A program made the translations under genes and the position numbers. The notes beneath the pieces are model-generated. The model was not told the DNA's origin. It did no database searches and saw only the letters and a program-made list of their open reading frames with translations. This document shows, in pieces, positions 23,769-23,905 of a DNA stretch of 64,000 nucleotides (the first letter of the stretch is position 1; the number at the start of each line of letters is the position of its first letter). The DNA comes from Planctomycetota bacterium. GTDB lineage: Bacteria > Planctomycetota > Phycisphaerae > Phycisphaerales > SM1A02. Location of the stretch: positions 1-64,000 of the forward strand of contig JADFIR010000002.1 in assembly GCA_022566535.1 (NCBI GenBank), written 5' to 3'.

Positions 23769-23905
23769 CGGCTCCATGGCCGTTGTATTACAAGAACCCC
23801 CCGGCAGAGCCCGGGGCTATCGGCAAGAGCGTGAAGGCTGATCGCTGACAGCTGACAGCTCGTCAATACACCTTTCGGCGACGAGCGGGAGGGATGTCGA
23901 GCTGC
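23769..23905 (-). repeat. Dispersed repeat copy A: rpoN 3'-end fragment plus hairpin repeat
   Basis: Reverse strand gcagctcgacatccctcccgctcgtcgccgaaaggtgtattgacgagctgtcagctgtcagcgatcagcc... matches 53077-53146 at 66/70 nt. Confidence 0.85.

What the first reader, a model, noticed from the sequence alone, without database searches (positions are those of the whole stretch)
23836..23905. Second copy of the rpoN 3' end, 29 kb from rpoN and in opposite orientation
Minus strand of 23836-23905 matches rpoN/downstream 53077-53146 at 66/70 nt. It includes the last 13 codons and stop (QLDIPPARRRKVY*). The two differences inside the coding part (cct/ccg, gct/gcc) are synonymous, suggesting this tail came from a divergent functional rpoN rather than from decay of the local one. 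Core-gene 3' ends duplicated beside accessory genes are a mark of site-specific integration or homology-arm transfer.
Basis: partly seen in the sequence, partly recalled or inferred. Interest (0 to 1): 0.88.

Follow-up and report, generated by a model that had tools for sequence, protein, structure and literature searches.

The report
Core-gene tails copied beside accessory genes
The end of a core gene (rpoN) has been copied next to accessory genes elsewhere on this Planctomycete chromosome, and the same kind of copied-tail scar sits around toxin-antitoxin and other accessory genes at several other core genes, which suggests a way such genes are slotted in behind core genes without an integrase.

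Summary
In detail: 66/70 nt, E about 4e-25 in a 3.36-Mb genome. But it is the left edge of something larger. The rpoN tail is followed by a shared intergenic block (heptamer run, GC hairpin, promoter-like leader), and a third, decayed tail lies at 26563-26646. Copies 23767-23881 and 26529-26642 are direct repeats flanking a 2.65-kb NHL/dockerin gene pair. A same-genus genome (G003) has the neighbouring gene, one tail and the block with no such insert.

Both blocks end in a leader followed by accessory genes: behind rpoN a PD-T4-3/CMoRE anti-phage nuclease, kept in three species; at the copy, a widely transferred gene ending in a translated attC. The leader precedes 21 different genes in four genera, with attC motifs enriched (7/21 versus 12/712).

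Tail copies are not unique to rpoN. In G000 they flank MntA-HepT at aroC/clpB (single-copy site without the insert in two relatives), HicBA and MntA-HepT at lpxB, and inserts at ntrC-like and porB-like genes; in G001, inserts at thiC and guaA. No integrase lies in any insert. I favour homologous-arm recombination over site-specific integration. How the first tail copy arises is unknown. All clear cases come from draft genomes; two one-contig genomes of other genera show none.

The parts
23836..23905 (-). copy 'a' of the rpoN 3' end (13 codons + stop + first 28 nt downstream)
   Evidence: 66/70 identity
23767..23881 (-). right direct repeat flanking the inserted gene pair: rpoN tail end, heptamer run (CTGTCAGCTGTCAGCGATCAGC), GC-rich hairpin (GATAGCCCCGGGCTC...)
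   Evidence: 86% identical over 115 nt to 26529-26642
26529..26642 (-). copy 'c': decayed rpoN tail plus the same block, directly behind gene X; left direct repeat
   Evidence: orthologous tail in G003:C236:1431-1551
51611..53119 (+). rpoN (sigma-54), source gene of the tail
   Evidence: Pfam and NCBIfam
53076..53178 (+). rpoN tail and downstream block shared with copies a and c
53264..53319 (+). second part of the block, displaced by about 85 nt of further hairpin sequence
   Evidence: 84% to 23768-23823 minus strand
53341..53412 (+). leader (promoter-like, attI-like core ending AATCAACTGTTTGGC) directly before PD-T4-3
   Evidence: 23 copies aligned
23527..23594 (-). leader copy before the 22033-23490 gene (core GATTCAACTGTCAGC)
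53437..54192 (+). PD-T4-3 / CMoRE GIY-YIG type IV restriction endonuclease, kept behind rpoN in G000, G001 and G003
   Evidence: PADLOC E 4e-114; PDB 9u75 E 5e-88
22033..23490 (-). accessory gene, possible VRR-NUC-like nuclease (weak), cassette-like
   Evidence: E 0.025, below Pfam cut-off; relatives across phyla
22026..22092 (-). attC-like left half read through by the gene's C-terminus (ANNQMQTDRPSA)
   Evidence: the same C-terminus in relatives; enrichment test
23915..24934 (-). inserted gene 1 (NHL/beta-propeller secreted protein) between copies c and a
   Evidence: no ortholog found in the three other genus genomes
25126..26307 (-). inserted gene 2 (beta-helix, dockerin) between copies c and a
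26690..27334 (-). gene X, core gene bordering the site; conserved at 93-95% in G001, G002, G003
19697..21931 (+). NosD/beta-helix gene convergent to gene X; other side of the insertion site

Best explanation
The second rpoN tail is a scar of accessory-gene acquisition. A stretch made of the last codons of rpoN, its terminator-like intergenic block and a promoter/attI-like leader was copied from behind rpoN to the site behind gene X before the genus split. A better-preserved rpoN tail came in later, in this species, as the right flank of an inserted NHL/dockerin gene pair. The most likely mechanism is recombination through homologous arms: incoming DNA carrying accessory genes next to a stretch of a core gene's 3' end pairs with that end (or with a repeat of it elsewhere), so the arm is left duplicated. 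The same kind of scar is found around toxin-antitoxin and other accessory genes at further core genes. Shown: the copies, the direct repeats, single-copy sites without the insert at two loci, the absence of an integrase in the inserts, the leader/attC cassette context. Inferred: the recombination route and the direction of transfer. Unknown: how the first tail copy arises.
For: Repeats 23767-23881 / 26529-26642 flank a 2.65-kb segment absent from G003, where gene X is followed by tail, block, leader and another gene. Copy a is nearer to rpoN tails (88-92%) than to copy c (79.5%), while c groups with the G003 X-tail (89.6%), so there were at least two events. Parallel cases: the aroC/clpB junction duplicated (237 bp, 95%) around MntA-HepT, single copy without insert in G003 and G001; lpxB tail in three copies around HicBA and MntA-HepT; ntrC-like and porB-like tails; thiC and guaA tails in G001 around DUF2442 and DUF4926 genes. 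At three of nine aroC/clpB differences the two copies match different relatives, as expected if one arm came from another lineage. Nearby direct non-coding copies in the genus: 13 of gene tails, 5 of gene heads, 1 of gene middles. The decayed middle lpxB copy and the G003 X-tail have lost their stop codon, as real non-coding copies would.
Against: Two one-contig genomes of other genera in the same family (481 genes) show no tail copy reaching the stop codon, so the pattern may be genus-specific or enriched by draft assembly. Tail versus head excess is modest (P about 0.05). rpoN to X is an inverted, 25-29 kb jump, not a local duplication, so it is not exactly the same geometry as aroC/clpB or lpxB. 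No strain pair catches the event in progress. Arms of 75-110 bp are short for RecA.
Confidence: 0.5

Rival explanations
1. Long target-site duplication: two nicks on opposite strands 75-240 bp apart near the hairpins behind core genes (for instance by Y1/REP-associated transposases) open a staggered break; passing DNA is joined in and fill-in leaves long direct repeats.
For: Gives the same final geometry. Y1 transposases are present in all four genus genomes; one insert is itself a Y1 transposase between 101-bp repeats at 97%; sites lie at hairpin-rich gene ends.
Against: Copies should start identical, yet three of nine aroC/clpB differences are shared with different relatives; copy a matches rpoN rather than the local tail c.
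Confidence: 0.2
2. Dispersal of an intergenic repeat block (REP-like hairpin plus heptamers) by gene conversion or RAYT mobilisation, with the rpoN tail as a hitch-hiker and no causal link to the accessory genes.
For: Pieces of the block occur at about 30 places genome-wide; Y1 transposases present.
Against: Only three of those places carry the rpoN tail; tails of other core genes are copied specifically around accessory genes.
Confidence: 0.17
3. Site-specific integration at the rpoN 3' end by a tyrosine or serine recombinase, the tail being attR.
For: Integration into gene 3' ends is well known; guaA, one of the parallel loci, is a known site for ICEs (own knowledge).
Against: No integrase in any insert; imperfect, long, ragged repeats; inserts of 0.5-2.7 kb with unrelated genes at each site.
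Confidence: 0.06
4. Integron activity alone: cassettes were captured at attI-like leaders behind rpoN and gene X, and the tail was copied when the leader region was duplicated.
For: Leader/attI similarity to IntI-bearing relatives, attC motif enrichment, translated attC.
Against: No IntI in the genus; integron recombination does not copy 300 bp upstream of attI; no leader was seen before the TA inserts at aroC/clpB, lpxB, thiC and guaA.
Confidence: 0.05
5. Assembly artefact: strain variants joined in tandem in a metagenome assembly.
For: All clear cases are draft genomes of this genus; none in two one-contig genomes of other genera.
Against: No N at the loci (the only N run in the surveyed G000 pieces is at C41:1218); an X-tail in two separate assemblies; tails with lost stop codons; each case would need two false joins.
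Confidence: 0.02

Closest known systems
Integron gene cassettes outside an integron with integrase (CALIN; insertion at attG sites, Loot et al. 2024 as cited in PMC12444791)
   Same: Single genes of wide phylogenetic spread, attC motifs at the 3' end, an attI/Pc-like leader before them
   Different: No integrase in the genus; the leader is dispersed at many places; most attC sites are incomplete; does not explain the copied rpoN tail
Unusual delta-attI gene cassettes (PMC12901181)
   Same: attI-type sequence outside its platform beside a cassette gene
   Different: Those are resistance cassettes in mobile integrons; here the sites are chromosomal and dispersed
Homology-facilitated illegitimate recombination (discussed in PMC2884548)
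   Same: One homologous arm anchors foreign DNA, the other end joins without homology
   Different: The tail duplication and the repeated use of core-gene 3' ends are not part of that description
Transformation-triggered merodiploids (PMC3784515)
   Same: A short donor fragment with repeated sequence produces duplications by alternative pairing
   Different: Duplications there are 100-900 kb; here 75-240 bp arms around 0.5-2.7 kb
Integrative elements using gene 3' ends (ICEs/IMEs at guaA and tRNA genes; own knowledge)
   Same: Core-gene 3' end repeated on the far side of the insert
   Different: No integrase, long imperfect repeats, tiny cargo

Membership tests
Integron / integron cassette | IntI-type integrase in the genome | tested here: not met
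   No hit over cut-off in G000; none at E 1e-60 in the four genus genomes, against 10 of 151 family genomes over cut-off
Integron / integron cassette | attC site behind the cassette gene | tested here: inconclusive
   CTAAC[AC] near the stop in 7/21 leader genes versus 12/712 controls, P about 4e-8; translated attC in relatives; folding of candidate sites not better than shuffled; no attC behind PD-T4-3 in the window
Integron / integron cassette | attI site upstream | tested here: inconclusive
   Leader 3' end (GATTCAACTGT, AATCAACTGTTNGGC) matches candidate attI cores ATTCA(A/C)CTGTTAGGC next to intI in G066/G103/G028 and AATCAACTGTT in G086, but over 11-16 nt only
PD-T4-3 / CMoRE | Sequence membership of the family | tested here: met
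   PADLOC PD-T4-3 E 4e-114 over the full length; solved CMoRE 9u75 E 5e-88
PD-T4-3 / CMoRE | Cleavage of 5hmC/5ghmC DNA and phage defence | not testable with these tools
   Shown for E. coli homologs in PMC12923530
Site-specific integrative element at a gene 3' end | Recombinase gene inside the element | tested here: not met
   Inserts read at rpoN/X, aroC/clpB, lpxB, ntrC, thiC and guaA hold no integrase
Site-specific integrative element at a gene 3' end | Identical short att core at both ends | tested here: not met
   Repeats are 75-237 bp, mostly 79-97% identical, one at 99%
REP/RAYT system | Y1 transposase in the genome | tested here: met
   PF01797 in all four genus genomes
REP/RAYT system | REP hairpins with a conserved tetranucleotide, flanking the RAYT gene | not tested
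   Hairpins follow some Y1 genes, but the REP signature was not analysed
Homology-facilitated recombination / transformation | Dependence on RecA and uptake of donor DNA | not testable with these tools
   Would need a cultured relative

The most novel reading that the evidence does not exclude
In this Planctomycete genus, small accessory modules (toxin-antitoxin pairs, phage-defence nucleases, secreted proteins) move among the 3' ends of core genes without a recombinase of their own. Each carries 75-240 bp of a core gene's tail as a homology arm, inserts by host recombination, and leaves the tail duplicated, so it can be looped out and reinserted.
Probability: 0.28. Interest if true: 0.75.

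Novelty: new variant of a known kind. Interest (0 to 1): 0.52.

Why it matters
How toxin-antitoxin and single-gene defence systems get into chromosomes when no mobile element surrounds them is an open question. A recognisable scar (the copied tail of the neighbouring core gene), with single-copy sites without the insert in relatives, would make such insertions countable in any genome and would point to host recombination as the route. If instead it proves genus-specific or an assembly effect, it is a caution for reading tail duplications in draft genomes.

Tried and rejected
Chance similarity: rejected (E 4e-25). Simple repeat of the tail genome-wide: rejected (three places). A 29-kb inversion between the inverted copies: rejected, because G001 keeps gene X and rpoN in the same order and orientation. 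The accessory gene of the copy standing behind rpoN in relatives: not found; PD-T4-3 stands there in G000, G001 and G003, and the G002 contig ends inside the block. Rfam gave only the SRP RNA. Paper searches for tail duplication around TA genes found no direct precedent; subscription journals are not held.

Full report
OBSERVATION. The minus strand of 23836-23905 matches 53077-53146 at 66 of 70 positions (E 3.6e-25 in the whole genome). The piece holds the last 13 codons and stop of a normal sigma-54 gene (51611-53119). Whole-genome search finds one more place, 26597-26642 minus, extending to 26563-26646 when the longer query is used. So the tail exists three times, all within 30 kb.

THE FEATURE IS LARGER THAN THE TAIL. 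Downstream of the stop, all three places share a run of heptamers (CTGTCAGC...GATCAGC) and a GC-rich hairpin (GATAGCCCCGGGCTC...). The rpoN place and copy a also share a second block and a promoter-like leader placed just before an accessory gene. Parts of the block, without the tail, recur at about 30 places in the genome.

THE INSERTION. Copies 26529-26642 and 23767-23881 are direct repeats (86%) flanking a 2.65-kb segment with an NHL and a dockerin/beta-helix gene. In G003, a different species of the same genus, gene X (26690-27334 ortholog) is followed by one rpoN-derived tail, then the block, leader and a different gene, with no such segment. G001 keeps block pieces behind gene X but has lost most of the tail. 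In G002 both the rpoN contig and the gene-X contig end at or near the block. Copy c and the G003 X-tail are 89.6% identical and form one old copy. Copy a is closer to rpoN tails of all four species (88.5-92%) than to c (79.5%), so it is a second event.

ACCESSORY GENES. Behind rpoN stands 53437-54192, a member of PD-T4-3 (PDB 9u75), renamed CMoRE, a type IV endonuclease against 5hmC DNA (PMC12923530); native activity in E. coli is reported in PMC12409345. It is kept behind rpoN in G000, G001 and G003, and near relatives at 73-82% identity occur in Nitrospira, Thiocapsa and Terriglobia, in Thiocapsa with an attC-like site behind it. Behind copy a stands 22033-23490, with relatives at 83-92% from unrelated phyla, several of whose C-termini repeat the motif ANKPMQTDRPSAGR, a translated attC.

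LEADER. A core (G)CTATACTGAACTGTTCAATCAACTGTTNGGC precedes unrelated genes at 23 places in 8 of 183 family genomes belonging to four genera. Its 3' end resembles the sequence next to intI in four family genomes that have an integron integrase. attC-like motifs near the stop are found in 7 of 21 leader genes against 12 of 712 controls. The genus itself has no integron integrase. I read this as cassettes behind dispersed attI-like leaders, but neither attI nor attC is proven; folding was uninformative.

NOT ONLY rpoN. A search of 854 kb of G000 for copied gene ends found: the aroC/clpB junction duplicated (237 bp, 95%) around an MntA-HepT pair, with single-copy sites without the insert in G003 and G001; the lpxB tail in three copies around a HicBA-like pair (weak Pfam support) and an MntA-HepT pair; the tail of an ntrC-type regulator (99%) around a secreted-protein gene; and the tail of a porB-like gene. 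In 418 kb of G001: the thiC tail around a DUF2442 gene and the guaA tail around a DUF4926 gene. Counting nearby direct non-coding copies in the two genus genomes (790 genes): 13 tails (9 reaching the stop), 5 heads (3 reaching the start), 1 middle (tails against heads P 0.048, against middles P 0.0009). Two one-contig genomes of other genera (481 genes) gave two weak tail copies, neither reaching the stop.

MECHANISM. The insert-plus-duplicated-tail geometry can come from a homologous arm on incoming or circular DNA, or from fill-in of a wide staggered break. At three of the nine clean differences between the aroC/clpB copies the two copies match different relatives, and copy a matches rpoN rather than its local neighbour; both favour an arm brought from elsewhere. 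No insert carries an integrase. Y1 transposases are present in all genus genomes and could supply nicks, so the fill-in model stays open. The step that first joins an accessory gene to a core-gene tail is unexplained under every model.

ARTEFACT CHECK. There are no N at these loci. The X-tail is present in two separate assemblies. The middle lpxB copy and the G003 X-tail have lost the stop codon, as expected of real non-coding copies and not of a sister allele. Draft assembly nevertheless remains the main caveat.

LIMITS. Genes were called by a simple longest-ORF rule. Only part of each genome was read. The relatives are few and unnamed. Direction of transfer and timing are inferred from short alignments. 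The tail-versus-head excess is modest.

Noticed in passing
G000:C1:95166-96349 (L187 15166-16349; L196): MntA-HepT toxin-antitoxin pair between aroC and clpB, flanked by a 237-bp duplication of the aroC/clpB junction; single-copy site without the insert in G003 (L197) and G001 (L198).
   Followed up: yes
G000:C41:55438-58198 (L226): lpxB followed by two successive TA inserts (HicBA-like, then MntA-HepT), each followed by another copy of the lpxB tail; the middle copy has lost its stop codon.
   Followed up: partly
L082 4666-6859 (G001:C35) and L249 (G001:C81:37346-40211): guaA and thiC 3' ends copied on the far side of small DUF4926 and DUF2442 genes.
   Followed up: partly
G000:C29:91270-94199 and G000:C36:69470-71080: 3' ends of an ntrC-type regulator (99% copy) and a porB-like gene copied about 1.3 kb and 0.5 kb away.
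   Followed up: partly
window 53341-53412, 23527-23594; L105-L118, L156-L171: A promoter-like leader ending in an attI-like core stands before unrelated genes at 23 places in four genera of the family.
   Followed up: partly
L133, L134: PD-T4-3/CMoRE relatives in Nitrospira and Thiocapsa with attC-like sites next to them, so this defence gene appears to travel as an integron cassette.
   Followed up: no
G012:C1, about 214-265 kb against 275-328 kb: A long run of paralogous genes at a constant offset of about 60 kb: a large diverged segmental duplication or two related elements.
   Followed up: no
window 60050-61335: Internal tandem repeats of about 230 nt inside the ORF 59857-61503.
   Followed up: no
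window 48393-48491: Bacterial small SRP RNA (Rfam RF00169).
   Followed up: no
L114, L110, L157: Leaders in three genomes lie directly behind the 3' end of Y1 (RAYT-like) transposase genes and a hairpin.
   Followed up: no
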